The notes under the pieces were generated by a model that was given only the letters and a program-made list of their open reading frames with translations, had not been told where the DNA came from and did no database searches. Below, piece by piece: positions 1 to 15,505 of a stretch of DNA of 62,129 bases. A program made the translations under genes and the position numbers. This DNA comes from Robiginitomaculum sp. (GTDB lineage: Bacteria; Pseudomonadota; Alphaproteobacteria; Caulobacterales; Maricaulaceae). The stretch is taken from contig JAESQN010000014.1 of NCBI GenBank assembly GCA_016765135.1, positions 1 to 62,129 of the forward strand, written 5' to 3'. Each line of letters begins with the position of its first letter. Positions within the stretch are counted from its first letter, which is position 1.

Positions 1-40
1 CTGAGGTGCTCCCCAATAATTGGACAGTTTTCGACCTTTT

Positions 41-925: not shown

Positions 926-1215
926 GACAGGCCCCAGGGTTTGAGCTTTTTTGATAAGAAATCACGTTCCACGGTTAGCTCACCGATCTTGGCATGTAGG
1001 TCTTTGATCCGCTCGGGGTCGACTTCGGGTACAGACCTACGGCCACGCTCAAAAACCTCTGGTCCGCCGTCGAGCAGCGCCTTCTTCCATTGATGGATTT
1101 GCGTCGGGTGAACACCGTATTGGCTGGCCAGTTCGGCTACCGTTCGTTCGCCCTTGATGGCTTCCAATGCAACTCGCGCCTTGAAAGCTGGTTTATGATT
1201 CTTACGTTTCGACAT
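922..1215 (-). CDS. IS3-family transposase OrfA (HTH DNA-binding)
   Basis: The frame is open from 1275, but the start chosen here is the ATG at 1215 (MSKRKNHKP), which has a GAGGAG ribosome-binding site a few bases upstream. The 97-residue product is a transposase_8 helix-turn-helix protein: the FKARVALEAIKGERTVAELA and YGVHPTQIHQWK segments are typical of IS3 OrfA, followed by a short leucine-zipper-like tail. The frame ends in FLSKKLKPWGLS, and the slippery run lies under the KK codons. Confidence 0.92.
   Translation of the reverse strand: MSKRKNHKPAFKARVALEAIKGERTVAELASQYGVHPTQIHQWKKALLDGGPEVFERGRRSVPEVDPERIKDLHAKIGELTVERDFLSKKLKPWGLS
946..952 (-). other. Programmed -1 ribosomal frameshift site (A AAA AAG)
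   Basis: On the minus strand the orfA frame reads TCA AAA AAG, which places a canonical A-AAA-AAG slippery heptamer in the correct phase about 24 bases before the orfA stop. A -1 slip carries ribosomes into the orfB frame through KKAQTLGPVMKRAM and yields OrfAB. The site is read directly from sequence; its use is inferred from the IS3 family. Confidence 0.8.
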
Positions 1216-1471
1216 TCTGATCTCCTCTTTGTCGAGACCAGACAACACAAAATAGTAGCTTAAGTCACTGTCCAATTATTGGGGAGCACCTCAGAGTGCT
1301 AATATGGTGCCAACTCAAAACTATAAGGCACAAGCTGTTTTATCTAATAATAACAATATCTTATACAGGTTCTAGCCCACTAGCATCAGGTGTGTACAAA
1401 TAATACCAACTCTCCATAAAAAATAACATCAGCATTCGGAGGCTAAATTTCAGGGTTTTTCAGGTTAATTA

Positions 1472-1649: not shown

Positions 1650-3860
1650 CTATCCCGCCAAGAACTTACCGTCCTTCCAAACTGCATCAATGGTCTGCTG
1701 GTCGCCTTGTTTTATATTACCTTGCGGTGCCGTATTAGAAGCCTTGTCAATTTCTTGCACCTTACCGTTCTCAACATGGAAAATACGGTTACAGTTTTCT
1801 ATGGCGGCGGCTCTGTGCGCCACAGTGATTTGTGTGACGGGAAGCCTGGTTAACAAGTTCAGCACACTGCGCTCGGTTTGCGGATCAAGATTAGCCGTAC
1901 CTTCATCAAGGAATAGTATTTTTGGGTTATGGTATAATGCCCGTGCCAATAAAACGCGCTGTTTCTGCCCGCCGGATAGAATTGATCCCATATCGCCAAT
2001 CAGGCTTTGGAAGCCCATAGGCATATCCATTATGTCCTTGTAAACATAAGCGGCCTTGGCACACATTTCTACGCGTTCCCCATCCATTTCAGGATCAAAA
2101 AAACTGATATTATCGTATAAAGACCCAGACAAAAGCCGGTCATCTTGCATGACCACGCCGATTTGGTGACGAATAGCGCGCACGCCTGTTGTCGATAATG
2201 AACGACCATCATAGAGGATGTCGCCTTCATTTGGTGTATGCAGGCCAATCAGCAGCTTGAGAAGCGTCGTTTTTCCCTCGCCGGACGGGCCGACAAGGCC
2301 AATACGGTCTTTTGGATGAACGGTCAGGTTTACACCATCAAGCACCCAAGGTTCATTGTCCCCATACCGGAATTTGAGATTTTTGACCTCGATCTTGCCG
2401 GACAGATTTTTGCCCACCAATAGTGGTGCATCTATGCCAACTTCCGGGTCTGCGTGGATTATATCTGCCAACCGTTCCAAGTGTAGCCCCACGGTACGAA
2501 ATGAGAAATACAAACCGATAAGTGATCCAACTCGTCCGGAAAACTGCCCCCTATATGATTGAAAGGCAAAGAACATGCCGAGGGTCAATTCTCCGTTGAT
2601 CACCAACTTACCGCCCAGATAAAACATGCCGAGTTCAAGCAGGCCAAAAACAATACCGCTGGCCGTGCCGGACATGATCCCAAAGCGTTGCAATCGCAAA
2701 CCGATATTCATATTATCCGCATAGGCATTTTGCCAAAGCCCGTGGCGTTCTTGTTCCCGGCCAAATATCTTGATAGCCCGCGCCCCGCGTATTGTTTCAA
2801 GTAAAATAGTTTGTAAATCCGCACTTTTCTGGATCTGCTCCTCGTTCATCCGCAGTACATAGGGGAAGGTGGCAAGCTGTGTGAGAAATGACAAAAAGAT
2901 AATCCCGACCACCAAGCCCGCTAACATGGGAGAATACAAAAACATGATAAAAAATGTGACCACTGCCATAATCCCGTCGAGCAGGATGGAGATAAAGGCG
3001 GAGGTAAACAAATTCTGCACGGGCTGTAATGACCCCATGCGCGACAACACATCGCCCACATGCCGCTTTTCAAAAAACTCGGCGGGCAGACGCATAACGT
3101 GGCGCAGCATATTTGAACGCATTTGAAAGTTCAACATAGTGCCAAAATACATACCGACATAGGAACGCAATACGCCAATCGCCGTTTGCACAAAGAGCAG
3201 CATGGCAAAACCCATTATGATAACTTTGAGAAAATTTATATCCCCCTTGGCGATGGCTTCGTCCACCACCAGTTGATTGACCAGCGGCGACAGCACAGCA
3301 AACACTTGTAGAACAACGGTAATGATAATGATTTGAATAATGGTCGGGATAAACCCGGTCATCTTTGACCATAAATCCCAAATCTTGACTTTATCTTTCT
3401 CGGCCTTTTTCTCGAAATTTGGCGTCGGTGTCAATTCCAGCGCAATGCCCGTGAAATGTTTGGACACATCATCAAGCCGCATTGTGCGCTTGCCTTTGGC
3501 GGGGTCGTGAATGACAATAGTTTTGCGCTTGACCTTTTTAAGCACGACAAAATGGTTAAGTCCCCAATGCAAAACGGCGGGCGTCTTGATCTGTTTCAAG
3601 TCCTCAATATCAAGCCGAAGCGCCCGCCCGGACATACCAATTTGGTCAGCGGCAATAGACAGAGATTTAAGATTAACGCCCTTGAGAGAGACGGTGAATT
3701 TACGCCGCATTTCCACCAGGCTAACGTTATAGCCGTGAAACCCGGCCACCATAGCCAAACAGGCCATCCCACATTCCGCCGCTTCGGCTTGCAGGATAAC
3801 TGGCAGTTTATTCCATTTAAACAGGTGAAGCTTTTCCGTCCCCGGAGGTAGTTTTCCCAA
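1650..3860 (-). CDS. C39-peptidase-containing ABC exporter (CvaB/PCAT type)
   Basis: This 736-residue inner-membrane exporter would remove double-glycine leaders and export the mature peptides. The N-terminal C39 peptidase has the expected Gln24 and catalytic Cys30 (QAEAAECGMAC), His103 (LNHFVVL) and Asp119 (IHDPAKG). A membrane domain with several long hydrophobic helices spans about residues 165-450. The C-terminal ATPase has Walker A GPSGEGKTT at 524-532, signature LSGGQ at about 628, Walker B ILFLDEG at about 648 and an H-loop VAHR. All catalytic elements are present and the length suits the family. It is divergent from the first GG-leader peptide gene, with a 182-base intergenic region, and is the obvious processor for the six leader peptides downstream. 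No TolC-like outer-membrane channel is in the window. Confidence 0.95.
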   Translation of the reverse strand: MGKLPPGTEKLHLFKWNKLPVILQAEAAECGMACLAMVAGFHGYNVSLVEMRRKFTVSLKGVNLKSLSIAADQIGMSGRALRLDIEDLKQIKTPAVLHWGLNHFVVLKKVKRKTIVIHDPAKGKRTMRLDDVSKHFTGIALELTPTPNFEKKAEKDKVKIWDLWSKMTGFIPTIIQIIIITVVLQVFAVLSPLVNQLVVDEAIAKGDINFLKVIIMGFAMLLFVQTAIGVLRSYVGMYFGTMLNFQMRSNMLRHVMRLPAEFFEKRHVGDVLSRMGSLQPVQNLFTSAFISILLDGIMAVVTFFIMFLYSPMLAGLVVGIIFLSFLTQLATFPYVLRMNEEQIQKSADLQTILLETIRGARAIKIFGREQERHGLWQNAYADNMNIGLRLQRFGIMSGTASGIVFGLLELGMFYLGGKLVINGELTLGMFFAFQSYRGQFSGRVGSLIGLYFSFRTVGLHLERLADIIHADPEVGIDAPLLVGKNLSGKIEVKNLKFRYGDNEPWVLDGVNLTVHPKDRIGLVGPSGEGKTTLLKLLIGLHTPNEGDILYDGRSLSTTGVRAIRHQIGVVMQDDRLLSGSLYDNISFFDPEMDGERVEMCAKAAYVYKDIMDMPMGFQSLIGDMGSILSGGQKQRVLLARALYHNPKILFLDEGTANLDPQTERSVLNLLTRLPVTQITVAHRAAAIENCNRIFHVENGKVQEIDKASNTAPQGNIKQGDQQTIDAVWKDGKFLAG

Positions 3861-4042
3861 TGTGTTGACCCTTTTTTGTTATCCTCACCCCGTATGTAGT
3901 TAATAGATTACTCCCTGTGTTGGCAAGCTAAAATCGTGTAAACAATATTTAATATCTTTAGGGTTGCGTGCAAGTTAAGGGCTTGTTAACCATGATTCAA
4001 AGTTGATATTTATCAGCAATTGGGATTGTACGGGATGTTATT

Positions 4043-4366
4043 ATGATGCGAGAGATGAAAGACCATGAGTTGGAGCTGGTCACGGGTGGTCGTGATGGTC
4101 TCTCCGGTGGTGATGATGTTGAGGCCGTAGTGCCTGTAATGCCTGGGGCTTCAAAACTAAAGACGGAAAAATATTTAAACGGTGTTGCGAAGGCAGCGCC
4201 TTTTTTATTGGGTCAACCAAAATTATTGCCTCTTTCCGGGCTTGGCACAGGGAACAGCCCCCAAAACACTTTCGCCCAGCCACCACGAAACTTGCCGGGC
4301 GCACCAAAGAGGCAAACCCGCAAAGGCGGCCCCTTCACTTTCAAGTCCCCCTATTTGAATAGATGA
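4043..4366 (+). CDS. Double-glycine leader peptide A1 (putative microcin-like precursor)
   Basis: The 107-residue precursor begins with MMREMKDHELELVTGG, a 16-residue leader ending in GG, suited to cleavage by the C39 exporter. The ATG at 4043 is preferred over 4046 because it aligns the leader residue for residue with the MLRE-type leaders in the locus; a GGGA lies about 8 bases upstream. The predicted core is about 91 residues. It begins RDGLSGGDDVEAVV and ends in a proline- and basic-rich tail (PRNLPGAPKRQTRKGGPF), with no cysteine. The function is not known; an exported antibacterial or signalling peptide is inferred from leader and context. The A2 gene at 9029 is a near-identical paralogue. 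Confidence 0.82.
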   Translation: MMREMKDHELELVTGGRDGLSGGDDVEAVVPVMPGASKLKTEKYLNGVAKAAPFLLGQPKLLPLSGLGTGNSPQNTFAQPPRNLPGAPKRQTRKGGPFTFKSPYLNR

Positions 4367-4427
4367 GCAGTATGAACAAAAAGAATTGGGCAATAATGCC
4401 TGATATGCGAATCATCTCATGGCGAGG

Positions 4428-4548
4428 TGATCCAAATCGGAGAGACGTACATTGTCCGTTACAAGATAAGTGCACGCCCCTCCACCCAAACAGGGCCAAG
4501 ACAATATAGCTATTGTCTGGCCCGATGGCAACCAAAAGGAGATATGCC
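4428..4548 (+). promoter_or_regulatory. Structured 5' UTR element, copy E1 (before peptide B1)
   Basis: The first of four related elements that each end at the ATG of an MLRE-leader peptide. Visible structure: an outer helix pairing GGAGAGACG (4439-4447) with CGCCCCTCC (4475-4483), with A-C mismatches; a small inner hairpin TTGT/ACAA; and a strong stem-loop, GGGCC plus AGACAATA (4493-4506, one bulged A) with TATTGTCTGGCCC (4511-4523) and a TAGC loop. GGCA (about 4527-4530) can also pair with TGCC (about 4545-4548) around the AGGAG ribosome-binding site, which could hide it. No T-run follows, so it is not an intrinsic terminator. I could not match it to a known riboswitch class. Confidence 0.75.
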
Positions 4549-4950
4549 ATGTTAAGAGAACTAAATGAAAATGAAATGATGATGGTTAGTGGGGGAACTG
4601 ACATTGATGAGATCATTGTAGTTGGTCAGAGAAGCCCAAGGATCGATCGGAATATGTTAAGAAACTCGCTAAGCGGAGGTATAGGCCGCCTGGTTGGGGG
4701 TATTAACCTGGACTTTATTTCTCAGGGATTCAATCCATTTGGCGGTGGAGGTGCGTCTGCGCAGACGCAGGAAACCATTGACAGGTTAGAAGCAAGAATT
4801 GTCGCACTCGAGAACCCACCGGAAGATCAGGTTGTTGACGATCCGGTAACAAACTCGGACGCCATAATAAATGCTATTGCTTGCGGGATTTCTCGCGGGT
4901 TATCTCGAGACGCGTGCGACAACAGAACGCCTGGAGAACAACGCCGTTAG
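4549..4950 (+). CDS. Double-glycine leader peptide B1 with Ton-box-like mature N-terminus
   Basis: The ATG at 4549 is chosen because it follows AGGAG at good spacing and gives the leader MLRELNENEMMMVSGG shared across the locus; the frame is open further upstream, but that extension lies in the UTR element. The 133-residue precursor would release a core of about 117 residues starting TDIDEIIVVGQRSPR. Its DEIIVVGQR segment resembles Ton-box motifs. The core then has a glycine-rich segment (GGINLDFISQGFNPFGGGG), a short helical stretch (QETIDRLEARIVALE) and two cysteines near the end. Its role is unknown; export by the C39 system is inferred. The next gene encodes a ClpP-like protease. Confidence 0.8.
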   Translation: MLRELNENEMMMVSGGTDIDEIIVVGQRSPRIDRNMLRNSLSGGIGRLVGGINLDFISQGFNPFGGGGASAQTQETIDRLEARIVALENPPEDQVVDDPVTNSDAIINAIACGISRGLSRDACDNRTPGEQRR

Positions 4951-4967
4951 CAATGGATTAATATCCG

Positions 4968-4992
4968 CCAGCCGCTCAACATGAGCGGCTGG
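4968..4992 (+). promoter_or_regulatory. Intercistronic hairpin after peptide B1
   Basis: CCAGCCGCTCA (4968-4978) and TGAGCGGCTGG (4982-4992) form a perfect 11-base-pair stem with a 3-base loop, followed only by TTTC. It sits between peptide B1 and its companion gene at 5018. It may be a weak terminator or an mRNA-stabilising element that sets a high ratio of peptide to companion. A similar hairpin follows peptide B3. Confidence 0.6.
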
Positions 4993-5017
4993 TTTCAATA
5001 GGAACTCAATTAGACAG

Positions 5018-5791
5018 ATGGCAAGACGTTTTTTATTTTTGGTGACTGTGTTCTTACTGGCCGTATTTCTGACTAAATGTGTGCGAGCCGTAAAAGGTGA
5101 GGCATCATTTAACGGTCGATTGCGTGGCGACAAGGTGGTACGTGTCTTAAACAATATGAACGATTTTGGGCGCTTGAGAATATCTTCGCGTGGTGGTCTC
5201 ACAAGTACATCCTTACAAGCCGCTCAAATCATTCAATTAAAGAAGATAAACATTGTCATTAAGAAGTATTGTATATCTGGATGCGCTGAAAAAATCTTGC
5301 CAGCTGCCAGCAAGGTCAGTTTTATAGACGATCCAATCATCGGGTTTCATCAAAATATTTTATCATCAAGATATGCCGTAAAATCTTACGCGGGAGACTA
5401 TAATAAATATTGCAATTGGCTTTATGCCAGAGAAACAGAACAGTTGTATTCATCATCGGGACATAATGTTCTCTTCTGGCAAGAAACTATGAAACGATTA
5501 AAACCAGAATTTTCATTCGATTATGCCCCCAAGAAATGTCCTAAAACAAAGTATGTTTTTGAAAACCAATTGTGGCTTCCTGCCTCTGACCAATTAAGTG
5601 AATTGCTTGGTTTGAAGTTCTCAGGTTCCGTCTGTGCTGATGATTTTGAAAAATGCAAAAAGAAAGTAGATCGCAGCTGGGGTGTAGGAACGCGCATCGT
5701 TATCGGGGATGAAATTTATATTTCCAAAGGTCATTGGACGGACAAAGTTGTTGTTTTTCTGATAGCGGGGTTGTCTGGTGGTTATAAGTAG
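5018..5791 (+). CDS. Membrane-anchored ClpP-like (COG3904-type) serine protease, companion of B1
   Basis: The 257-residue product has one N-terminal hydrophobic segment (residues 4-18), suggesting a signal anchor and an extracytoplasmic domain. The region after residue 50 follows the ClpP/crotonase pattern of periplasmic COG3904-like proteins: a glycine-rich strand (LRISSRGGLTSTSLQAAQII), a hydrophobic strand, then CISGCAE with the candidate nucleophile Ser, and GFHQ with the candidate catalytic His. The C-terminal 100 residues are unassigned and contain several Cys. It lies 67 bases after peptide B1 on the same strand. It could process, degrade or give immunity to the peptide. Base composition is AT-rich compared with the core genes. 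Confidence 0.6.
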   Translation: MARRFLFLVTVFLLAVFLTKCVRAVKGEASFNGRLRGDKVVRVLNNMNDFGRLRISSRGGLTSTSLQAAQIIQLKKINIVIKKYCISGCAEKILPAASKVSFIDDPIIGFHQNILSSRYAVKSYAGDYNKYCNWLYARETEQLYSSSGHNVLFWQETMKRLKPEFSFDYAPKKCPKTKYVFENQLWLPASDQLSELLGLKFSGSVCADDFEKCKKKVDRSWGVGTRIVIGDEIYISKGHWTDKVVVFLIAGLSGGYK

Positions 5792-5807
5792 CCTTGATAG
5801 AAGGGCT

Positions 5808-5928
5808 TGATCCAAATCGGAGAGACGTACATTGTCCGTTACAAGATAAGTGCACGCCCCTCCACCCAAACAGGGCCAAGACAATATAACCATTGTCCGG
5901 CCCTATGGCAACCAAAAGGAGATATGCC
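5808..5928 (+). promoter_or_regulatory. Structured 5' UTR element, copy E2 (before peptide B2)
   Basis: Almost identical to E1 from TGATCCAAATCGG to the ATG. Differences fall in or near the loop of the main hairpin (ATAACC instead of TATAGC) and leave the GACAAT/ATTGTC stem and the GGGCC/GGCCC base intact. The sequence upstream of TGATCC is unrelated to E1, which fixes the left boundary of the element. It starts 17 bases after the protease gene stop. Confidence 0.75.
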
Positions 5929-6342
5929 ATGTTAAGAGAACTATCAACAAAAGAAATGGAAATGGTCAGCGGGGGATTTGCGGGGCTTGCAGCTTTTCCG
6001 ATTGGCCCGATTCTCCCACCTTTAATAAGTGTAATAGTGCCGCCATTAATTGACGCACTTACTCCTAGTGCACCGCCGCCGCCTGTTCAAACGGGACCAT
6101 CAACCGAAATAGATTCAGGTAATGGTAATGATACCAATATACCCATTACTATCATTTGTAATGCAAATTCTCCGGCAGGATGTGGGCAAGTTACTATAAA
6201 TTTCGGCGTCGGCGGCCTGACTGATGGCGATACAGGCGGTATTGGTCGCGGCGGCCCTCCTGTTGCTGGAGGGAGCGGGGGCGGTAGCAGAATTAAAGAT
6301 GACAAACCAAATTACGGAGGAACTGTAACAATCCAGGATTAG
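5929..6342 (+). CDS. Double-glycine leader peptide B2, proline/glycine-rich core
   Basis: The start at 5929 has the AGGAG site of element E2 and gives the leader MLRELSTKEMEMVSGG. The 137-residue precursor releases a core of about 121 residues. It begins with a hydrophobic, proline-rich stretch (FAGLAAFPIGPILPPLISVI) able to insert in a membrane, followed by a PSAPPPPVQTGP linker, two Cys (ICNANSPAGC) that could form a small disulfide loop, and a glycine-rich tail. No homologue is recognised. Hydrophobic plus glycine-rich segments recall class II microcins, but this is only an analogy. The downstream companion is an alpha/beta hydrolase. Confidence 0.8.
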   Translation: MLRELSTKEMEMVSGGFAGLAAFPIGPILPPLISVIVPPLIDALTPSAPPPPVQTGPSTEIDSGNGNDTNIPITIICNANSPAGCGQVTINFGVGGLTDGDTGGIGRGGPPVAGGSGGGSRIKDDKPNYGGTVTIQD

Positions 6343-6467
6343 AGAAACATAAAACAACCACCCTTAATTCTAAAATTATGGCGTGGGTTTAACAGAACTC
6401 AAAATAGATATTAGTTTTGTATTGTTGAATGTTAATCATGTTTCGAGTATATAAGCTAAAATTGAAT

Positions 6468-6490
6468 GGCCGCGCCTTAACGGCGCGGTC
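6468..6490 (+). promoter_or_regulatory. GC-rich hairpin in the B2-to-hydrolase gap
   Basis: GGCCGCGCC (6468-6476) and GGCGCGGTC (6482-6490) form a 9-base-pair stem with a TTAAC loop in an otherwise AT-rich 275-base gap (6343-6617). The following sequence is A-rich, not T-rich, so termination of plus-strand transcripts is doubtful. No other gene or repeat is seen in the gap. Confidence 0.5.
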
Positions 6491-6617
6491 AATATAAAAA
6501 ACTCAATATATCACCACTGATAACAGGTGTGGGTTCACTAATTGGACAATATGGTCGTGACATACTGTAATCTCCAACTCCAACACTGTAGGCCTTCGAA
6601 AAAGAATAAATGATTAA

Positions 6618-8036
6618 ATGAAAAAACTGCGACTTATATTCATTAAAACACTCATCATGTTTTTTTTAACAATCCCTGCAAATGCACAAACCGTTCAGGT
6701 TAATCACACCGCAGAAAAACCCAATGAAATATCGTTGAACATTGAAGGTTTACAAGTCGGAGAAAAATATAATCTTATTTTGGTGTATAAAATAGGCGAA
6801 CAGTATTTTACGGGCAAGATCGAAATATTCTCAAATGACAGCCGCATATCAAGCGGGGCTATGAGCTTTAACAGATATGAGACACTACAACTGTTCTGGG
6901 GTGCAAAGCCAATAAAGTTTGAAGACATCCCCATAGCGATCAGAACAGTAATTTCAGAAGAAAATGCGGATGAACAGCCATCGAAAAATAAAAATATATT
7001 CTTTGGATTGTGGGCGAAAGACGAAGAATTTGTTTCTATAAATGCCGCCTATGGGAACGTTACTTCAGATTGGATTGGTATCGTAGGTGATGACTTAGCG
7101 GCTAGTCTTTATAAATCTCCCTATGAAACCTCAAACGCAAAACTACCGTTTATAATAGTATTGGGGGGGAGCGAGGGCGGCTTTGCAAATCCTCATTTTT
7201 CAGTGAATTTATCCTATGAGCATTACATAGTTATTTCTGTCGCTTATTTTGGCATTAAGGGCACACCTGATTGTCTCATGAATATTAACATAGATGCACT
7301 GAAACCGTTGGTAAACTATCTGAAGTCGCATCCATTAAACGATGGTACGCCTATATCTTTGATAGGGGTTTCACGGGGTGCGGATTATGTCACGCATTAT
7401 GCCAAAGAAAACCCGGACGATATAGGAAGTCTTATTCTTGTTGCACCCGATACATACATGTATGGCAGGGCGCGTTGCACTAAAACATTATTGAGTAATT
7501 CTTCTTTTCTAATCGATGGCGAAGTTATTCCATATATTCCCTATGTTTCTTTAAATTGGTGGCAAAGGGCGATGGTAAGAATACAAAATAATAAGACAGG
7601 TGCTTCAGACCTCAGATATAGAAAAAAACTTTGGCTAAATAATCTCTCAAATAAAACCAAACTAATGGCAAGGTTGCCATTGCGAGATATAGATATTCCT
7701 GTTTTAATTTTAAAAGGCGGTGACGATAGATTATCGGAATTTGATGAAAAAACAATTGAACTCAAACGCTCTCAAAACGTACTCATCAAACGCTATGAAA
7801 ACGCAGGGCATAAAATATTCGGTAGTATCTTTTCTCCTATGTATCAATCGAAACAGCTTACTGATAAAAAAGGTAATATCAGACTCCGCGGCGGCACAGA
7901 CGAAGCCAATGCCGAAGCTCGGTATCAAGTGTGGATATCCATTCTCGATTTCCTCGAAGACCAATATGGCCCCTATGATGAGACATTAGCAAGGCGGCAC
8001 AAAACATCATGCCCGATAACCCGGATCAAGCCATGA
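6618..8036 (+). CDS. Secreted alpha/beta hydrolase (BAAT/acyl-CoA thioesterase-like), companion of B2
   Basis: The 472-residue protein has a clear signal peptide (hydrophobic core about residues 8-22, ANAQ cleavage region) and so is likely periplasmic. The N-terminal 130 residues look like the beta-sandwich domain of the acyl-CoA thioesterase / bile-acid-CoA amino acid N-acyltransferase family. The C-terminal domain shows an oxyanion-region LGGSEGGF, a nucleophile elbow GVSRGAD, an acidic residue in GGDDRLSEF and the histidine in ENAGHKIFG, making a full Ser-Asp-His triad. Such proteins are usually stand-alone enzymes, so its place between two leader-peptide cassettes is notable. The substrate is unknown. 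It is strongly AT-rich, which fits foreign origin. Confidence 0.75.
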   Translation: MKKLRLIFIKTLIMFFLTIPANAQTVQVNHTAEKPNEISLNIEGLQVGEKYNLILVYKIGEQYFTGKIEIFSNDSRISSGAMSFNRYETLQLFWGAKPIKFEDIPIAIRTVISEENADEQPSKNKNIFFGLWAKDEEFVSINAAYGNVTSDWIGIVGDDLAASLYKSPYETSNAKLPFIIVLGGSEGGFANPHFSVNLSYEHYIVISVAYFGIKGTPDCLMNINIDALKPLVNYLKSHPLNDGTPISLIGVSRGADYVTHYAKENPDDIGSLILVAPDTYMYGRARCTKTLLSNSSFLIDGEVIPYIPYVSLNWWQRAMVRIQNNKTGASDLRYRKKLWLNNLSNKTKLMARLPLRDIDIPVLILKGGDDRLSEFDEKTIELKRSQNVLIKRYENAGHKIFGSIFSPMYQSKQLTDKKGNIRLRGGTDEANAEARYQVWISILDFLEDQYGPYDETLARRHKTSCPITRIKP

Positions 8037-8041
8037 GGGTT

Positions 8042-8166
8042 TGATCTTTAAATCGGAGAGACGCGCTTTAATGATTGTTGAAGTCAGAGCACGTCCCTCC
8101 ACCCATAAAGAGCGAGAGTACTATACGCAGTGTCCCGTTCTTTGGCAATCTTAGAAAGGACATGTC
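8042..8166 (+). promoter_or_regulatory. Structured 5' UTR element, diverged copy E3 (before peptide C)
   Basis: This copy keeps the constant parts (AATCGGAGAGACG, CACG-CCCTCCACCC, TGGCAA, an RBS and ATGTTAAGAGAA) but has different sequence in between. The outer helix improves to GGAGAGACG/CGTCCCTCC. The inner hairpin becomes CTTTAA/TTGAAG. The main stem becomes AAAGAGCG (8107-8114) with CGTTCTTT (8136-8143), replacing the GGGCC-based stem of the other copies. Same architecture with different bases is what conservation of RNA structure predicts. It begins 5 bases after the hydrolase stop. Confidence 0.7.
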
Positions 8167-8478
8167 ATGTTAAGAGAAATATCAACAAATGAAATGAATA
8201 TTCTTCCCGGGGTATTTTACGATGCCATGGTTTCGATGGAACCACTTTGTTCTGACAATGTGAAATCTCCAAAAGTGATTAAATTCAAGTATTCTCTCTG
8301 GATACCTTCAAAACAGTATCTAATCGATATGGGGGTAAATTATAATGGATATTGGCCAGAAAATGCAAAGCAAGCGCAACAAAGTCTCAAAGGGAAAATG
8401 AAAGACGGGGTTTCGTGGTTTTACGGCTACAATGTCACAGCCTACAAAGACCAAAAAAACGTTAAGTGGGCTTGCTAA
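8167..8478 (+). CDS. Leader-like peptide C with degenerate cleavage site
   Basis: The 103-residue protein starts MLREISTNEMNILPGV. It matches the locus leader up to NEM but has Pro-Gly-Val where the others have Ser-Gly-Gly. The GG cleavage site is therefore lost or altered, and processing by the C39 exporter is doubtful. The rest (FYDAMVSMEPLCSDNVK, then a Lys- and aromatic-rich segment ending VKWAC) resembles no other core here and has one Cys near the middle of the N-terminal half and one at the C-terminus. It could be a decayed peptide, or a product using the leader only for translation control. A small membrane protein gene follows directly. Confidence 0.68.
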   Translation: MLREISTNEMNILPGVFYDAMVSMEPLCSDNVKSPKVIKFKYSLWIPSKQYLIDMGVNYNGYWPENAKQAQQSLKGKMKDGVSWFYGYNVTAYKDQKNVKWAC

Positions 8479-8495
8479 CAAATGTGGGGATTAGC

Positions 8496-8819
8496 ATGGA
8501 TATAATAATTTCATATTTCTGGGTTAGCTTCATATATTGGTCGCTCGCATTTCTGGCAAAAATCGCCTTTAAACTCAAAATATCAAACGAAAGCTGGTTG
8601 TTCTTTTGGCTGGCCTACGGCGCTGTACTAATAAAAGCGACCCTTAAAGGCACATTCTATGACGATATTTCATATGCCATTGTGGGCGGTATTTGTTTTA
8701 CTTTAAGCATACATTTCATGGATAAGATGCAGCCCAAGTTTCAGGGTAAAAATATTATGAGGGTGTTCATCCTCGTGGGAATAATTGTTTTCATTTTTGA
8801 ACCCCGGATAAGGAGCTGA
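8496..8819 (+). CDS. Small multi-spanning membrane protein, candidate immunity protein
   Basis: The frame is open from a GTG at 8466 that overlaps peptide C. The ATG at 8496 is preferred because a GGGGA lies 7-11 bases upstream, giving 107 residues starting MDIIISYFWV. Three to four hydrophobic segments are visible (about residues 3-22, 32-50, 60-72 and 86-102), with no soluble domain. Small membrane proteins encoded just after microcin or bacteriocin genes are often immunity proteins; that role is inferred here from size, topology and position. No family was recognised. Confidence 0.6.
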   Translation: MDIIISYFWVSFIYWSLAFLAKIAFKLKISNESWLFFWLAYGAVLIKATLKGTFYDDISYAIVGGICFTLSIHFMDKMQPKFQGKNIMRVFILVGIIVFIFEPRIRS

Positions 8820-9028
8820 CACCATATCATCCCCTAGCGGCACTGTGCCCGCAATTGTGTTTTGTTATCCTCACCCCGTATGTAGTTAATAGATTACGCC
8901 CTGTGCTGGCAAGCTATAATCGTGTAAACAATATTTAATATCTTTAGGGTTGCGCGCAAATTAAAGGTTTGTTAACCATGATTCAAAGTTGACATTTATC
9001 AGCAATTGGGATTGTACGGGATGCTATT

Positions 9029-9361
9029 ATGATGCGAGAGATGAAAGACCATGAGTTGGAGTTGGTCACGGGTGGACGTGATGGTCTCTCCGGTGGTGAT
9101 GATGTTGAGGTCGTAGTGCCTGTAATGCCTCTAACGCCTGTGGCTTCCACACTGAAGACGGAAAAATATTTGAACGGTGTTGCGAAAGCAGCGCCTTTTT
9201 TATTGGGTCAACCACAATTGTTGCCACTTTCCGGGCTTGGCACAGGCTACAGCCCAAAAAACACTTTCGCCCAGCCACCACGCAACTTGCCGGGCGCACC
9301 AAAGAGGCAAACCCGTAAAGGCGGCCCCTTCACTTTTAAATCTCCGTATTTGAACAGGTGA
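9029..9361 (+). CDS. Double-glycine leader peptide A2 (paralogue of A1)
   Basis: The 110-residue precursor has the same leader as A1 (MMREMKDHELELVTGG) and a core that differs by a three-residue insertion (MPLTPVAST in place of MPGASK) and a handful of substitutions (A to V, K to Q, N to Y, Q to K). The tail PRNLPGAPKRQTRKGG is identical. The reading frame is intact and the changes are mostly conservative, so both copies appear to have been kept under selection. Start choice and likely export are as for A1. A1 and A2 lack the E-type UTR element; their own upstream region (about 170 bases) is conserved between the two copies instead. Confidence 0.82.
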   Translation: MMREMKDHELELVTGGRDGLSGGDDVEVVVPVMPLTPVASTLKTEKYLNGVAKAAPFLLGQPQLLPLSGLGTGYSPKNTFAQPPRNLPGAPKRQTRKGGPFTFKSPYLNR

Positions 9362-9425
9362 GCAATATAAGGAACAAAAAGAATTGGGCAATAATGCCTG
9401 ATATGCGAATCATCTCATGGCGAGG

Positions 9426-9546
9426 TGATCCAAATCGGAGAGACGTACATTGTCAGTTACAAGATAAGTGCACGCCCCTCCACCCAAACAGGGCCAAGAC
9501 AATATAGCTATTGTCTGGCTCTATGGCAACCAAAAGGAGATATGCC
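9426..9546 (+). promoter_or_regulatory. Structured 5' UTR element, copy E4 (before peptide B3)
   Basis: Near-identical to E1. The main hairpin base changes from GGGCC/GGCCC to GGGCC/GGCTC, where the substitution turns a G-C pair into G-U and keeps the stem. The inner loop has CAG where E1 has CCG. It ends at the AGGAG ribosome-binding site and ATG of peptide B3. Confidence 0.75.
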
Positions 9547-9966
9547 ATGTTAAGAGAACTAAATGAAGTTGAGATGCAAATGGTCAGCGGGGGTCTAGAC
9601 GAAGTTGTATCTAATGGTCAAAGGACAGGTCAAACCAGAGAGCAGGTAGAGTCCATAAGGGACCAAATTAACGGCGGCGGAGGTGGCGGTGGAAACTCAG
9701 GTGGTGGCGGTTTTGGTGGTGGTGGTTTTAGTATATCCCCCGAACTCTTGGCACATGTTGGAAGTTTAGTATTGCCTGAGGGTGTCAGTGTTGGAACAAT
9801 TACATTGCCAGATCCGGCACCAACTATTGATCCGCAAGACCCAACCGCGTCGCAAACCACTACGCTTACAGGGCTAACATTTGATCTTGGAAACGGTACC
9901 AGTGTGACCGCTGGTGCAAATTCATCGGGAACGGTTGGCGGGAATATTACGGTTCGCTTCCCCTAA
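9547..9966 (+). CDS. Double-glycine leader peptide B3, glycine-rich core
   Basis: The ATG at 9547, with AGGAG upstream, gives leader MLRELNEVEMQMVSGG in a 139-residue precursor. The core begins LDEVVSNGQRTGQ, echoing the DEIIVVGQR start of B1. It then has a run of glycines with few interruptions (about residues 53-73), a hydrophobic segment (SPELLAHVGSLVLPEGVSVG) and a Thr/Gly/Asn-rich C-terminal third. There is no Cys. No family is recognised. It is followed by an 11-base-pair hairpin and then an aspartyl protease gene. Confidence 0.8.
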   Translation: MLRELNEVEMQMVSGGLDEVVSNGQRTGQTREQVESIRDQINGGGGGGGNSGGGGFGGGGFSISPELLAHVGSLVLPEGVSVGTITLPDPAPTIDPQDPTASQTTTLTGLTFDLGNGTSVTAGANSSGTVGGNITVRFP

Positions 9967-9983
9967 CCCAATTGGCAACAAAA

Positions 9984-10009
9984 TGGCCTCAAGATTGTTC
10001 TTGGGGCCA
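9984..10009 (+). promoter_or_regulatory. Intercistronic hairpin after peptide B3
   Basis: TGGCCTCAAGA (9984-9994) pairs with TCTTGGGGCCA (9999-10009) through 11 base pairs, one of them G-U, with a TTGT loop. It lies between B3 and the companion protease, in the same relative place as the hairpin after B1, but shares no sequence with it. No T-run follows, so partial termination or mRNA-end protection are both possible. Confidence 0.6.
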
Positions 10010-10029
10010 CATATATTAAGGATGTTCAA

Positions 10030-11310
10030 ATGAAAACTCTATTAGCCAGGTTCGTTATAATTTTCACTATAGTTTTTTTGATAGTGCTAGGGACGTGTAG
10101 TCTGGCTAAGCCAGCTTCCACTGCCGCTAGCGATTATGTTACGCATCATATAGCATTAGTTGAGGTGGAAAGGTTTCCTGTGGTTAATGTGTCAATCAAT
10201 GGCGGCAATAAGTTAAAATTTATTATTGATACGGGTGCGCAAAGAACCATCTTAGCCCCAAAAACTCGCCATTCCCTTAACTTGGCTGGTAATCGAAACG
10301 ATAAAACAGTAATGTCAGGATTAACGGGTGCAATAGACAGTTTTACGCTAGCTGAAACCAAAATACAGCTCGGAAACAGTAGCTTAAAATGTCCGGTGAT
10401 AATGCTCTCATATTCAGATAAAACTGTAGAGCAAAATGATGTTTATAAAGAAATTTTTGCTAAATATGATGGTATATTGGGTATGGATTATTTCTATGGT
10501 GCCAAGCTATCTATAGATGGCCAGAACCGATCAGTGGCGGTAACAATAAAAAAAGGTAATGGTAAAACCGTTTGTGGGTTAACTTTTAAACGCATGGACG
10601 AACATAAAATAGATAATATGTTACGCAACGCAGTATTATCGGTCGAACTTGAGGATATGAAGTTTGATATATTGGCTGACACTGGGTTGGCTGATAACAA
10701 AGTTATTATGTTTTTGCCTAATAATAAAACACGCGCTTTATGGGGTAAGGCAAGTCAAAATTATACCATGGCAAATGTTCCCTTGTTTGGAAATCTACCA
10801 TTGAAGCAAACTTTGTTTCCAAACGTAAAAATATCAGGGAAAACATCTGAAAACATGATGGTGCTTTTACCCTCGCCATGGGACGATAGGTATACGGACA
10901 AAAGCACTATTGACGGTTTCATAGGGTGGAAATATCTAAGGTATGGTGTATTGGATGTTGACTATTCCTCAAACGATAACAATTACGCAAGTTTTCATTT
11001 TCATGAAAATTGGGACAACCGGCAAAATCTATCTGGCATGCGCGAAGGTTTAGCAATGACCCCGAAGGGAGAAATTGTATTCAACAAAGTTGACAAAAAT
11101 TCTCCGGCAGATGTTGCTGGGATACAAAAAGACGATAAAATAATTAAACTTGATGGTGCGCGGTTTTCAATGGAAAACCCAGAAGGTTTTTTCGATGCAT
11201 TAGCAGGAAAAAAGGGAAACGTCTCGGTTCAATTGTTACGGAATGGTGCCATAATAGACACAGAACTTATTTTTAACGACTACCTTTTGCAGAATTCTAT
11301 CAATAAATGA
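10030..11310 (+). CDS. Secreted aspartyl protease-like protein (two DTG motifs) with C-terminal PDZ, companion of B3
   Basis: The 426-residue protein has an N-terminal hydrophobic segment (residues 6-24), a signal peptide or anchor. Two retropepsin-like lobes follow: the first has FIIDTGAQRTIL near residue 64 and ILGMDYF near 154; the second has ILADTGLADNKV near 216 and FIGWKYLRYGVLDVDY near 297. Residues 340-420 form a PDZ domain (SPADVAGIQKDDKIIKLDG). This architecture matches bacterial aspartyl protease family proteins with PDZ. The stop overlaps the start of the HlyD adaptor by four bases (ATGA), so the two are co-transcribed, tying the protease to the export system. Peptide trimming or immunity are possible roles. 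AT-rich. Confidence 0.8.
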   Translation: MKTLLARFVIIFTIVFLIVLGTCSLAKPASTAASDYVTHHIALVEVERFPVVNVSINGGNKLKFIIDTGAQRTILAPKTRHSLNLAGNRNDKTVMSGLTGAIDSFTLAETKIQLGNSSLKCPVIMLSYSDKTVEQNDVYKEIFAKYDGILGMDYFYGAKLSIDGQNRSVAVTIKKGNGKTVCGLTFKRMDEHKIDNMLRNAVLSVELEDMKFDILADTGLADNKVIMFLPNNKTRALWGKASQNYTMANVPLFGNLPLKQTLFPNVKISGKTSENMMVLLPSPWDDRYTDKSTIDGFIGWKYLRYGVLDVDYSSNDNNYASFHFHENWDNRQNLSGMREGLAMTPKGEIVFNKVDKNSPADVAGIQKDDKIIKLDGARFSMENPEGFFDALAGKKGNVSVQLLRNGAIIDTELIFNDYLLQNSINK

Positions 11311-12542
11311 CCCTATTCCGCCCTGAAGCTCTTGAACATAAACGCCGCAAACTGCACGGTGAGGTGATTATCGTACAGCCTGTTAGTTTCTTCGTTTTGA
11401 CGGCGGTATTTTTTGTCGTGACTGCCGTTATCGTCGCATTTCTAGCCAGTGGGGAGTATAAGCGCAAAGAAACCGTTATAGGTTATATCGCGCCCGAACG
11501 GGGGCTGTCGGTTATTCGCGCTGACCAGGGTGGGCGGTTGACGCAGGTGTTTGTTAGTGAGGGGGATGTGGTGCCTGCGGGAACGCCCTTATTTGCGGCG
11601 CGGCTGGGTATGGAGACCGAGGGTGGCCGTGTCGGGGAACGGCGTCTTAAAAGCACAGATGTCAGGCTGTCTGAATTGCGTGAGCAAGAAGCGGGTATCA
11701 AGGCGCGGTTTCGCGGTGAACGGGCGCGCCTGAACGCACAAAAATCCAGCTTCATGGCTGAGATTTCCGGTCTTAGGAAGCGGCGTGTTTTGCAAACCAA
11801 ATCCGTTGAAATCGCCGCATCGCAACTCAAACGGTATGCCCGCCTGTCCGCAGACGGCACAACCTCGCAGCTGGAGCTTGATCAGGCTAAATCAGGCGAC
11901 ATTAACCAACGCCTAAATCTTGCCAGTGTAGACCAGCAAATCATAGCCAGGCAGGCGGCGCTGGCCGAAAACAAGTTTGCGCAAAAAGCATTGGTCGGGA
12001 ATGAGGAGCGGGAATTGTCGGGCCTGCGCATTCAAATCAGCCAGTTGGAGCAAAGCCGTGTGGAGCTTGAAGCATCAGATTGGTATATTGTCCGTAGTCC
12101 CATTGGCGGAACCATAGCGGCCTTGCAAGGAACCGTTGGGCAAAGCATCTCGCCCAATGCGCCCGTGGTTATGATCATTCCAGAAGACACTGATATGGTG
12201 GCTACGCTTTTGACGTCCTCAAAATCTGTCGCATTTTTGGAAGCTGGCCAGGACGTGAATTTGTTGATCGACGCATTCCCGTATCAAAAATTTGGCGTAC
12301 AGAAAGGCGTTATCAAGGACATATCAAAAACACCGTATAAGCCAGGAGAACTTGATGCACCTATACCCTATGAGCAATCCGTATACCGCGTCGTTGTCAC
12401 CCTCAACAAACAAACGGTGACAGCATACGGCAAAGAAGTCCCGATCAAAACAGGTATGACCCTGCAAGGTGATTTAATCGTGGATAGTCGCACACTCTTA
12501 CAATGGATGATGGAACCACTACTGACCATGAAGCGGAGTTAA
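11307..12542 (+). CDS. HlyD-family membrane fusion protein of peptide exporter (CvaA type)
   Basis: The 411-residue adaptor would link the C39 ABC exporter to an outer-membrane channel. The N-terminus is cytoplasmic and basic (RPEALEHKRRKLHG), followed by one transmembrane helix (about 26-48). Next come the lipoyl-like half GYIAPERGLSVIRADQGGRL, a long coiled-coil hairpin (about 110-250), the second half with SPIGGTIAALQGTVGQS, and a beta-barrel domain ending in VPIKTGMTLQGDLI. The order and the short cytoplasmic stretch match colicin V secretion protein CvaA. It closes the peptide locus at the opposite end from the exporter and is less AT-rich than the companion genes. Confidence 0.92.
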   Translation: MTLFRPEALEHKRRKLHGEVIIVQPVSFFVLTAVFFVVTAVIVAFLASGEYKRKETVIGYIAPERGLSVIRADQGGRLTQVFVSEGDVVPAGTPLFAARLGMETEGGRVGERRLKSTDVRLSELREQEAGIKARFRGERARLNAQKSSFMAEISGLRKRRVLQTKSVEIAASQLKRYARLSADGTTSQLELDQAKSGDINQRLNLASVDQQIIARQAALAENKFAQKALVGNEERELSGLRIQISQLEQSRVELEASDWYIVRSPIGGTIAALQGTVGQSISPNAPVVMIIPEDTDMVATLLTSSKSVAFLEAGQDVNLLIDAFPYQKFGVQKGVIKDISKTPYKPGELDAPIPYEQSVYRVVVTLNKQTVTAYGKEVPIKTGMTLQGDLIVDSRTLLQWMMEPLLTMKRS

Positions 12543-13179: not shown

Positions 13180-15402
13180 CTAGAAGAAACTGCCTATGGA
13201 GAAATAAAGTGATGTATTACCTTCATCATTATAGCCAATACCGACAAATACCGGGCCTAAGGGCGATTTCATGCCCGCAAAGATACTGCTGGCATAAATG
13301 GCGTCCCCGAGGTTGATTGTATCAAAGGATTGGTAAACATTGCCCGCCTCTAAAGACCCGCCAATATAGAGCGGAAAATCAAACAAAGTCGCTTGCCGGT
13401 TGAGCCGGTAGTAATACGTGCCAAAAGCCATGGCTGCATATTGGCCAGATAATTCGTCTTGGCTAAATCCGGACAGTGCCAAGAATCCGCCCAAATTTGA
13501 TGTCCCGATCAAATTTGCATCCCGCCCCTCTGCGCCCGACAAGCGTGTTCCAACACCAAAAGTATGCCGCCCTTTTGTGAATGGTTTGAACGCATTTATA
13601 GTTGTTTGATTAAACTGGGTATCACCTCCCAAAAATGTATCATGCACCTGATATTCGGCAATGATCAAACTACCACTGGTCGGAAATGCCAGGCTGTCAA
13701 GCGTGTCCACGCTTGCGCGGGCCATGAGGAAACTATCGTCCACTGTAAGCGCATCAATCCCAAGCGTATCGTCTGTAAAACTGAGTTTGATTTTCGACCT
13801 GGAAAGCCCGCCGCGCAATTCCCCCCAACGTCCAAATAACATACCGCCTTGTATAGAACCACCCACACTCAGAATTTTCAAATCGCCGCGCCGTCTATCC
13901 AAATCATCAAAAAAAATGCTTTTTTGTCGTTGTAAAGACAAGGACGGCTCAATGAAAAACCGTTGCTTCGTGCCTATGGGTTGATAAAATTCGGTGACGC
14001 CTTCAAGTGTATCCCAGATATTAAGTTCGGTGCGCCATTCGCCGCCCCACTTATTGACCAAGGGTTTGGTGTAGGAAACCCCCAGAATAAATGAGGAGGT
14101 GTCCTCTAGATTAGAATCAAGCGATACGCCAAATTTGAAATACCCGTCCGCGCTTTCTTTCACCTTGGCGTTTATATGTAGCACGGTTTTGTCTTTTGTT
14201 TCGTCTACTTCATATGTGATGCGGTCATAAATGCCATTGCCGTAGAGCCTGTCTATATCCTTGTTGAGCCAATCTGGGGAAAAAACATCGCCAGGCCGGA
14301 TTGAAATACCAGCCCGTAATATCTCGTCTGACAATTTCGAATTTTGGAGCACCTGTATCTCGTCAATAACCGGTCGTTTTTGCGGCACTGCCAATCTGGC
14401 CATCAAATGGTTTTGCCAGTCCTGGTCATTTAACCTAAATGCCGCAAGTTTTGGCAATATGGTTTGCACCGACGTCCTGCCCATTTCGGCCAAGGTGCTG
14501 GCCTGGTCGAAACTTGCAGCACTAAATCCCTCCAGTTTCGGTTCGATTAAAACATCCCCTTGTTTTAGAGATTTAATTTGCGCTTCGGTGTTTTCTTTTG
14601 TCAGAATAATTTGTGTTTGGCGTAAGACTTCTATGAAATTACTAATCTCGGATACGGGCTTTGGGTCAGTACCAACATTGACCACAATGACAATATCCGC
14701 GCCAAGTTCCCTAGCCAAATCTACCGGAAGATTATTCACCAATCCGCCGTCAATCAGATAAACTCCCTCGCGCTCAACGGGTGGGATCAAACCTGGTATG
14801 GCCATAGACGCGAATACGGCCGAGGCCAAATCCCCGTCTTTCATAACGACGGCCTTACCTGTGCTCAGATCCGTCGCCACGAGCCTGAACGGTATGGGCA
14901 AGGCCTCAAATTTTCCAATAGAGCGGGTTTCAGACAACAGGCTGGAGAGTTCCAAAAACAGGTTTTGGCCCTGAATTATCCCTTGCGGCAATACAAGCCT
15001 CCTGTTTTTAAACGTAATTTTATAGTCCGTCAAAAACCCAAATTCGTCGGTCTTGCGGCGGAATGTCGAGCGACCACGGGACGTTTTGTCATTAAATAAT
15101 TCGTGCCAATCAAGTTCATTTGTGATGTTGATAAGCTCGTCCGCACTATAACCAGACGCATAGAGCGCCCCGACAATCGCCCCCATAGATGTACCCGCAA
15201 TCACATCAACCGGGATTTGGTTGTCCTCAAGTGCTTTGATCACCCCCACATGGGCCAACCCCTTGGCACCGCCACCACCCAGAACAAGCCCTATTGTCGG
15301 GCGGTCTTTTTGGGATGGTGCCTGAGCGGATGTCTGGGCAAAAACGCTGACGCTCATGCACGTAAACAACATTAGGAATATCAGTAGAAGTGTGCGCATC
15401 AT
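13180..15402 (-). CDS. Patatin-like phospholipase with outer-membrane beta-barrel (PlpD / type Vd autotransporter)
   Basis: The start is placed at the ATG pair 15402/15399 because it opens directly onto a signal peptide (MMRTLLLIFLMLF... VFAQ); the longer frame has no such logic. The product is about 740 residues. The patatin domain has the oxyanion loop GGGGAKGLAHVGVIKALE, nucleophile motif GTSMG, and the catalytic Asp in LIDGGLVNNLP. A POTRA-like stretch follows (about residues 400-470), then a predicted 16-strand barrel ending in SLYFSIGSFF with the C-terminal aromatic expected for BamA recognition. The family members are secreted or surface lipases. It is divergent from the U32 gene and lies just outside the island relics. 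Confidence 0.85.
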   Translation of the reverse strand: MMRTLLLIFLMLFTCMSVSVFAQTSAQAPSQKDRPTIGLVLGGGGAKGLAHVGVIKALEDNQIPVDVIAGTSMGAIVGALYASGYSADELINITNELDWHELFNDKTSRGRSTFRRKTDEFGFLTDYKITFKNRRLVLPQGIIQGQNLFLELSSLLSETRSIGKFEALPIPFRLVATDLSTGKAVVMKDGDLASAVFASMAIPGLIPPVEREGVYLIDGGLVNNLPVDLARELGADIVIVVNVGTDPKPVSEISNFIEVLRQTQIILTKENTEAQIKSLKQGDVLIEPKLEGFSAASFDQASTLAEMGRTSVQTILPKLAAFRLNDQDWQNHLMARLAVPQKRPVIDEIQVLQNSKLSDEILRAGISIRPGDVFSPDWLNKDIDRLYGNGIYDRITYEVDETKDKTVLHINAKVKESADGYFKFGVSLDSNLEDTSSFILGVSYTKPLVNKWGGEWRTELNIWDTLEGVTEFYQPIGTKQRFFIEPSLSLQRQKSIFFDDLDRRRGDLKILSVGGSIQGGMLFGRWGELRGGLSRSKIKLSFTDDTLGIDALTVDDSFLMARASVDTLDSLAFPTSGSLIIAEYQVHDTFLGGDTQFNQTTINAFKPFTKGRHTFGVGTRLSGAEGRDANLIGTSNLGGFLALSGFSQDELSGQYAAMAFGTYYYRLNRQATLFDFPLYIGGSLEAGNVYQSFDTINLGDAIYASSIFAGMKSPLGPVFVGIGYNDEGNTSLYFSIGSFF

Positions 15403-15505
15403 AGTCAGCTTGGTTACAAATTTCCTGCACCATAAGAAACTGAGGTTAACGCAGTGTTGCAAAATTGTATTGTGGAGACCCCCTAAATATGACAAGAGGC
15501 GCGCC

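What the first reader, a model, noticed from the sequence alone, without database searches (positions are those of the whole stretch)
1650..12542. One exporter, six leader peptides: a cassette-type GG-peptide locus
A C39-peptidase ABC exporter and a CvaA-type adaptor bracket six small genes whose products share a 16-residue leader plan (M-x-R-E-...-E-x-x-x-V-S/T-G-G in five of six; the C peptide is degenerate) but have four unrelated cores plus one duplicated pair. The leader is constant and the core changes completely. Each MLRE-type peptide comes as a unit with an upstream element and a downstream companion. I recognise the exporter family but not this arrangement or any core.
Basis: partly seen in the sequence, partly recalled or inferred. 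Interest (0 to 1): 0.9.

Follow-up and report, generated by a model that had tools for sequence, protein, structure and literature searches.

The report
Swappable secreted-toxin cassettes behind one exporter
A marine bacterium carries a row of exchangeable gene cassettes, each apparently a small exported toxin with its own companion gene, and some of the exported proteins seem to begin with a copy of the docking tag of outer-membrane nutrient receptors, which could be how they enter victims.

Summary
Mostly right, with one correction. Exporter (1650-3860) and adaptor (11307-12542) bracket five real double-glycine (GG) peptide genes (A1, B1, B2, A2, B3). The sixth, "C" (8167-8478), is a leader fused to the tail of a ClpP-like companion, a deletion remnant.

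Each MLRE-type gene is a module: a structured RNA element with covarying hairpins, a leader, its own core, and a downstream companion: ClpP-fold protein, alpha/beta-hydrolase, aspartyl protease with PDZ, or membrane protein. Relatives (Robiginitomaculum, Hellea and others) hold the same locus with one or two GG peptides and other core/companion pairs.

(1) In a congener the ClpP-like companion follows an orphan Rhs toxin tip (48% identity). (2) 5 of 8 element-linked GG peptides carry, 1-6 residues after GG, a stretch that scores like the TonB boxes of this genome's own receptors.

Best reading: a polymorphic-toxin/immunity array using a GG leader and type I secretion; TonB-assisted entry is inferred. 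Rows of GG peptides at one exporter also occur elsewhere (Aquimarina). No experiment supports any function. New variant of a known kind.

The parts
1650..3860 (-). C39-peptidase ABC exporter (736 aa)
   Evidence: Pfam C39, ABC_membrane, ABC_tran; 64-89% identical to seven relatives
4043..4366 (+). A1: GG peptide MMREMKDHELELVTGG, 107 aa, C-terminal FKSPYLNR
   Evidence: C-terminal motif kept in G013 and Hellea A peptides
4434..4552 (+). RNA element 1 (three hairpins; start codon of B1 in the last)
4549..4950 (+). B1: GG peptide MLRELNENEMMMVSGG, core starts TDIDEIIVVGQR (TonB-box-like)
5018..5791 (+). Companion of B1: ClpP-fold protein, 257 aa
   Evidence: model pLDDT 90, Foldseek top hits ClpP prob 1.00; invariant S-x-G-G and C-x-S-x-C in 13 of 13
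5814..5932 (+). RNA element 2
5929..6342 (+). B2: GG peptide MLRELSTKEMEMVSGG, core without box
6618..8036 (+). Companion of B2: alpha/beta-hydrolase, 472 aa
   Evidence: BAAT_C 1.8e-10 and Hydrolase_4 2.7e-8, both over cut-off
8050..8170 (+). RNA element 3 (diverged copy)
8167..8478 (+). C: leader fused to the tail of a ClpP-like companion; remnant
8496..8819 (+). Hydrophobic companion behind C, 107 aa from the ATG (analysed from 8502)
   Evidence: no Pfam family over cut-off
9029..9361 (+). A2: duplicate of A1, 110 aa
9432..9550 (+). RNA element 4
9547..9966 (+). B3: GG peptide MLRELNEVEMQMVSGG, core starts LDEVVSNGQR (TonB-box-like, weaker)
10030..11310 (+). Companion of B3: retropepsin-like aspartyl protease with PDZ, 426 aa
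   Evidence: Asp_protease_2 3e-10, PDZ 1.7e-6; relative beside a B3-like peptide in G006
11307..12542 (+). CvaA/HlyD-type adaptor, 411 aa
   Evidence: alignment to relatives; the family name is recalled, not searched
3874..4569 (+). Duplicated stretch (other copy about 8862-9567): A upstream region, A gene, element, start of MLRE leader

Best explanation
This is a bacteriocin-like polymorphic-toxin locus that uses a double-glycine leader and type I secretion. The constant part of each module is an RNA element plus the 16-residue leader; the variable part is a toxin core with a companion gene. SHOWN by sequence: module structure, shared element and leader, exchanged core/companion pairs in relatives, gain and decay of modules, ClpP fold (model) of one companion type, the same companion type behind an Rhs tip. 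INFERRED: the C39 domain cuts after GG and exporter plus adaptor (with a TolC that I did not look for) release the core; companions neutralise the cognate toxin in the producer's envelope; in several modules the freed N-terminus acts as a TonB box so that the toxin is pulled into a target's periplasm; the last hairpin, which holds the start codon, regulates translation; homologous recombination at the near-identical element/leader and at the adaptor start swaps or adds modules.
For: Exporter and leaders. Syntenic loci with other pairs: A + MLRE + 666-aa protein with a weak a/b-hydrolase match (G013), A + MLRE + ClpP-like + 95-aa hydrophobic protein (Hellea), MIRE + 204-aa hydrophobic protein (G130), MRVL + ClpP-like (G146). 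B3 type and Asp-protease companion occur together again in G006 (47% and 25% identity). ClpP-like companion: GG peptide next to it in 4 of 11 profile-hit loci read outside the window and Hellea, Rhs tip in 1 of 11; that Rhs-linked copy is 48% identical to the window's over 196 aa. RNA element: 7 pairs with changes on both sides vs 2.4 shuffled, 0 of 500; model finds G130 and G115, not used to build it. Box: B1 22.6, G130 26.5, G006 20.4, B3 13.0, G115 10.4 against 2206 unrelated windows with one at 14.1 and the rest under 10. Module gain/decay: duplication ending in the leader, adaptor-start stub before the next element in G006, orphan module ending in an adaptor stub in G115.
Against: No toxicity, export or immunity data. 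No known toxin domain in any core. 6 of 11 ClpP-like loci read have neither GG peptide nor Rhs tip by my reading and pattern search, so the family is not confined to this role. Companions are larger than usual microcin immunity proteins (51-216 aa, PMC10233263 passage). In Hellea a small hydrophobic protein follows the ClpP-like gene and could be the true immunity protein. 3 of 8 element-linked peptides (B2, G013, Hellea) and the A peptides lack the box. B1 and the Rhs tip that share a companion type show no detectable similarity beyond the start motif. The regex was made after seeing the peptides; the related sequences are not independent.
Confidence: 0.55

Rival explanations
1. The companions are second-stage maturation or tailoring enzymes: after C39 cleavage each envelope hydrolase trims or modifies its cognate peptide, which is a signal or surface protein and not a toxin.
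For: Three of the four companions in the window look like enzymes, catalytic-type residues of the ClpP-like family are invariant in 13 of 13, and each core type keeps its enzyme type (B3-Asp protease in two genomes).
Against: A ClpP-like copy sits behind an Rhs tip, and other modules have only hydrophobic membrane proteins in the same slot.
Confidence: 0.22
2. The GG peptides are glycine-rich matrix, biofilm or adhesion proteins; core diversity is antigenic or phage-driven and companions are unrelated envelope enzymes.
For: Gly-rich stretches in B3 and G130; GG proteins that act in biofilm formation are known in a cyanobacterium (PMC4997328, abstract start in listing).
Against: Tight core-companion pairing across genomes, Rhs link, TonB-box-like starts.
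Confidence: 0.13
3. The upstream element is a small gene (42 codons) that is translated and coupled to the peptide gene, not an RNA structure.
For: Open in B1, B2 and B3 with GTG/TTG starts, and its stop overlaps the peptide ATG.
Against: Among B1/B2/B3 2-4 nonsynonymous vs 0-1 synonymous codon differences (few in all); indels and an early stop in C; the protein is found in 1 of 99 genomes, the window's own; pairs covary.
Confidence: 0.1

Closest known systems
Class II microcins (microcin V: CvaC, Cvi, CvaB, CvaA)
   Same: GG leader, C39 ABC exporter, adaptor, one neighbour gene per peptide; parts list as in PMC10233263 (passages)
   Different: Cores of about 120 aa without family match; several modules behind one exporter; companions are hydrolase-like and larger; [quoted passage not shown]
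Polymorphic toxin systems (Rhs, CDI and others)
   Same: Constant trafficking part, exchangeable toxin part with downstream partner gene, cassettes and remnants; one companion type is shared with an Rhs tip
   Different: The text held of the 2012 survey (PMC3482391, passages) has no occurrence of 'type I secretion' or 'double-glycine'; it calls Imm-ARG the only known enzymatic and Imm65 the only lipoprotein-like immunity protein of its collection; no known toxin domain found here
Caulobacter Cdz (contact-dependent glycine-zipper bacteriocin)
   Same: Alphaproteobacterial type I secretion with small exported proteins and an immunity gene (PMC5380434, passages)
   Different: Two small proteins (86 and 84 aa) and a three-TM immunity protein; no cassette array, no hydrolase companions
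Group B (TonB-dependent) colicins and ColM-type bacteriocins
   Same: TonB box in an N-terminal stretch of the toxin (PMC5821083, PMC11658791, passages)
   Different: Large multidomain proteins, not exported by a GG leader; here the box is only predicted and would be freed by leader cleavage
Nif11/NHLP leader precursors
   Same: Constant leader and hypervariable core after GG (PMC2887384, passages)
   Different: There long enzyme-related leaders and shared modifying enzymes; here a short bacteriocin-type leader and a separate companion per core

Membership tests
Class II microcin / GG bacteriocin locus | GG leader peptides beside a C39 ABC exporter and adaptor | tested here: met
Class II microcin / GG bacteriocin locus | Match of a core to a curated bacteriocin family over its cut-off | tested here: not met
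   only sub-threshold leader matches
Class II microcin / GG bacteriocin locus | Killing activity and a cognate immunity protein | not testable with these tools
   no experiment; position only
Polymorphic toxin system | Constant N-terminal part with exchangeable C-terminal part and downstream partner gene | tested here: met
Polymorphic toxin system | Partner or toxin module shared with another delivery system | tested here: met
   ClpP-like partner behind an Rhs tip, one genome; toxin parts themselves not shown homologous
Polymorphic toxin system | Recognisable toxin domain | tested here: not met
   no Pfam/NCBIfam domain in the cores scanned
Group B (TonB-dependent) bacteriocin | TonB box near the N-terminus of the mature protein | tested here: inconclusive
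   sequence score like own receptors in 5 of 8 element-linked peptides, absent in 3; function untested
Cdz system | Glycine-zipper pair with three-TM immunity protein | not tested
   no zipper search made; gene content differs by reading
ClpP fold (companion 5018-5791) | ClpP-like fold with conserved Ser and GG motif | tested here: met
   Pfam CLP_protease only at E 0.07 for Hellea's copy
CPBP/PrsW intramembrane protease (hydrophobic companions of G006, G046, G130) | Family match | tested here: not met
   no Pfam match up to E 5; the resemblance was recalled

The most novel reading that the evidence does not exclude
A polymorphic-toxin class delivered by GG leader and type I secretion, in which export cleavage itself frees an N-terminal TonB box that mimics the producer clade's own receptors, so that TonB pulls the toxin into relatives. 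The same box stands right after the core junction of some Rhs tips, so toxin modules and partners may pass between Rhs and GG delivery. Companions are envelope hydrolases that give enzymatic immunity, and a per-gene RNA element that holds the start codon serves both as regulator and as recombination hinge.
Probability: 0.3. Interest if true: 0.86.

Novelty: new variant of a known kind. Interest (0 to 1): 0.62.

Why it matters
If right, it links two toxin worlds that are mostly treated apart, diffusible GG microcins and Rhs-type polymorphic toxins, through a shared partner gene and a shared start motif, and gives a sequence-level prediction of how some small secreted toxins cross the outer membrane. 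It also predicts enzymatic, envelope-placed immunity, which the 2012 survey knew in one case, and makes microcin entry testable by removing one nine-residue stretch.

Tried and rejected
The upstream 42-codon frame as a gene: not preferred. CPBP/PrsW proteases for hydrophobic companions: no Pfam match. Homology of B1 with the Rhs tip that shares its companion type: none found. G006's GG core aligns with that Rhs tip over 88 aa at 30%, and without the start motif over 43 aa at 33% (E 3e-6 for a one-pair search): suggestive, not relied on. The start-codon hairpin as special by itself: in 53-nt folds 45 of 196 ordinary genes also have a paired AUG and 5 of 8 element genes do (the G115 row was set one base off and is dropped); in longer minimum-energy folds it forms in B1, B2, B3, C, G013, G130, Hellea and G006 but not in G115. 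Limits of the RNA model: it was built on five sequences, searched over 86 sources (window plus 85 of the 131 loci then held), gives Hellea only E 0.14, misses G006, and the stricter genome scan of 137 family genomes missed G130, Hellea and G006; of its five genomes with E <= 1, G126 and G031 hit inside other genes and are taken as chance. The Rhs-tail count (2 of 22) comes from the 30 best loci of a search whose query contained the motif, so it is not a rate. The 6 of 83 GG cores include two outside this clade (L078, L089), of which L078 scores only 2.0, and leave out G115 by the length rule. Structure of B3: no confidence (pLDDT 38). PDB sequence search of the ClpP-like profile: nothing relevant. 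Literature: seven searches, seen as listings; seven papers opened, all by passages only; none of what I saw describes GG peptides with a TonB box.
Full report
WHAT IS THERE. The window is all of contig C6 (62,129 bases) of a 2.87-Mb genome. Order: exporter (minus, 1650-3860); A1; element-B1-companion; element-B2-companion; element-C-companion; A2; element-B3-companion; adaptor (11307-12542). From the spacing I infer two transcription units, each headed by an A gene; no promoter test was made.

THE SIXTH PEPTIDE. C starts MLREISTNEMNILPG and has no GG. Residues 20-87 are 38% identical to the C-terminal part of Hellea's ClpP-like companion. A profile of four ClpP-like companions without C finds 8218-8439 at E 4e-10 as positions 153-231 of 249. 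C is a leader joined to the tail of a companion, as a deletion between the two would leave.

THE ELEMENT. By DNA search three near-identical copies lie in the genome, all here; C has a diverged one. B1, B2, B3, C and G013 share three hairpins: 89% of cells pair, seven pairs change on both sides (2.4 by shuffling, 0 of 500 reach it), and sliding the partners drops pairing to 34-47%. Only two of the five sequences (C, G013) are well diverged, so this rests on few changes. The model then finds G130 (E 1.5e-7) and G115 (E 3e-8), neither used to build it, each directly before a MIRE/MLRE leader; Hellea reaches E 0.14 and G006 is missed, though G006 keeps the GGAGAG...CCTCCACC ends and a start-codon hairpin. 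In B1-B3 the last hairpin pairs the A and U of the start codon, with a compensatory change in G013. A start codon in a local stem is not rare (45 of 196 ordinary genes), so its regulatory role is inference.

COMPANIONS. In the window: alpha/beta-hydrolase and retropepsin+PDZ by Pfam, ClpP fold by model and Foldseek (pLDDT 90, probability 1.00, E 2.7e-6) with S-x-G-G and C-x-S-x-C invariant in 13 of 13, and a 107-residue hydrophobic protein. A loose lipobox pattern fits 7 of 8 ClpP-like and 1 of 2 Asp-protease companions. In relatives the slot holds a 666-aa protein with a sub-threshold hydrolase match (G013), ClpP-like plus a 95-aa hydrophobic protein (Hellea), a 204-aa hydrophobic protein (G130) or a ClpP-like protein (G146). 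In G006, same genus, a B3-like peptide (47%) sits with an Asp-protease homologue (25%) and the adaptor. No exporter of this clade was seen in G006. Of 299 order genomes 72 have a ClpP-like profile match at E <= 1e-5; many of the listed matches are short. I read eleven hit loci apart from the window and Hellea, seven of them again with wider stretches, and searched those without an obvious neighbour for GG leaders by pattern: a GG peptide adjoins in 4 (L143, L150/L179, L151/L180, L152/L181; in the last the GG gene comes after it), an Rhs tip in 1 (L144/L178), neither in 6 (L145, L146/L184, L147/L182, L148, L149/L183, L154).

RHS LINK. In G006 a ClpP-like gene 48% identical to the window's over 196 aa lies right behind a short orphan Rhs tip; a full-length Rhs gene and another orphan tip lie upstream, and 3 of 3 tips start KDEVISTGTRR after the DPTGL junction. 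The GG core of the same genome starts TEDEPIDEVVSTGTRRT. Among 22 distinct Rhs tails 2 carry the motif (0.06 by shuffling), but the search that brought them used a query with the motif. Among 83 GG-type cores 6 carry it in the first 30 residues (0.27 by shuffling, at most 3 in 500).

TONB BOX. The motif is the TonB-box region of this clade's receptors. From 25 Plug-domain hits of the same genome 21 boxes were taken (for example DEIISTGTR, DEIIVTATK) and turned into a score. B1 22.6, B3 13.0, G130 26.5, G006 20.4, G115 10.4, the two Rhs tips 22.0 and 26.6. Of 2206 30-residue windows of other proteins one reaches 14.1 and the rest stay under 10; B2, G013, Hellea and A1 score below zero. So 5 of 8 element-linked GG peptides have it, starting 1-6 residues after GG; two of the five (B3, G115) are weak. 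A profile of four leader+box starts, run over 385 class genomes (42 with a match at E <= 0.5), found no new peptide with both halves; none of the known relatives appears among its matches, so they were evidently not in that sample. Its box half hit long frames: nine were tested, seven with a clear box have Plug and TonB barrel, two are OMP_b-brl_4 barrels.

EVOLUTION. The duplication of A + element ends inside the MLRE leader: a new core was joined at the leader. In G006 an adaptor-start stub stands before the next element, behind a hydrophobic companion. In G115 an orphan module with a frameshifted core and a ClpP-like gene (46% over 217 aa) ends in an adaptor stub; G115 is a MAG with 8% estimated contamination. 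Both fit insertion or replacement of modules between leader and adaptor. Among orthologous loci read none has more than two GG peptides, but rows of GG-type frames occur at distant exporters of Aquimarina and Pleionea (3-8), so the row as such is not new.

HOW IT PROBABLY WORKS. The exporter cleaves and exports (family knowledge of C39 exporters); companions protect the producer's envelope (position, pairing, Rhs link; inferred); box-bearing cores enter relatives through TonB (box alone; inferred). Microcin V enters by a TonB receptor but is not predicted to have its own TonB box (PMC12511343, passage), group B colicins have one (PMC11658791, passages), and a peptidase that cleaves the toxin is a described immunity to microcin C (PMC10233263, passage).

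VERDICT. Real and well delimited, one peptide fewer than claimed. It works like a class II microcin locus built as a polymorphic-toxin array; it is not filed as either, because no core matches a known bacteriocin or toxin domain and nothing is tested. The most interesting part, the TonB-box-like start freed by leader cleavage and shared with Rhs tips, rests on sequence alone.

Noticed in passing
window 1-1293: IS3-like element (two overlapping transposase frames, 41-925 and 922-1275, by reading) with near-matching ends at 1-27 and about 1265-1293; it fills the contig start beside the exporter.
   Followed up: no
L178 / L204 (G006:C32): A full-length Rhs gene followed by two orphan tips with the same DPTGLKDEVISTGTRR junction, each followed by a small gene, with transposases between.
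   Followed up: partly
L218 (G019:C5): Another Rhs tail with a TonB-box-like stretch, NDEIIVTGQRP, in a different genus.
   Followed up: no
window 4043-4366 and 9029-9361; L037:15238-15627; L038:15186-15560: The A peptides, next to the exporter, diverge in the middle but keep a C-terminal motif ending (Y/F)(L/I)NR in 4 of 4; its role is unexplained.
   Followed up: partly
G000:C26:43121-45181 and G000:C27:4340-6424: Two further C39-type exporters in the same genome (43-45% identical), the second with two short GG-type frames nearby.
   Followed up: no
L179:7358-8925 (G154:C30): Two ClpP-like genes in tandem behind one GG peptide, with no exporter in the 12 kb read.
   Followed up: no
L082:4740-5542: Four near-identical GG-type frames in a row, three of them alike in the residues printed, near a Pleionea exporter.
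   Followed up: no
window 13180-15555: Patatin-like protein with an outer-membrane-type C-terminus on the minus strand beyond the adaptor; named by reading only.
   Followed up: no
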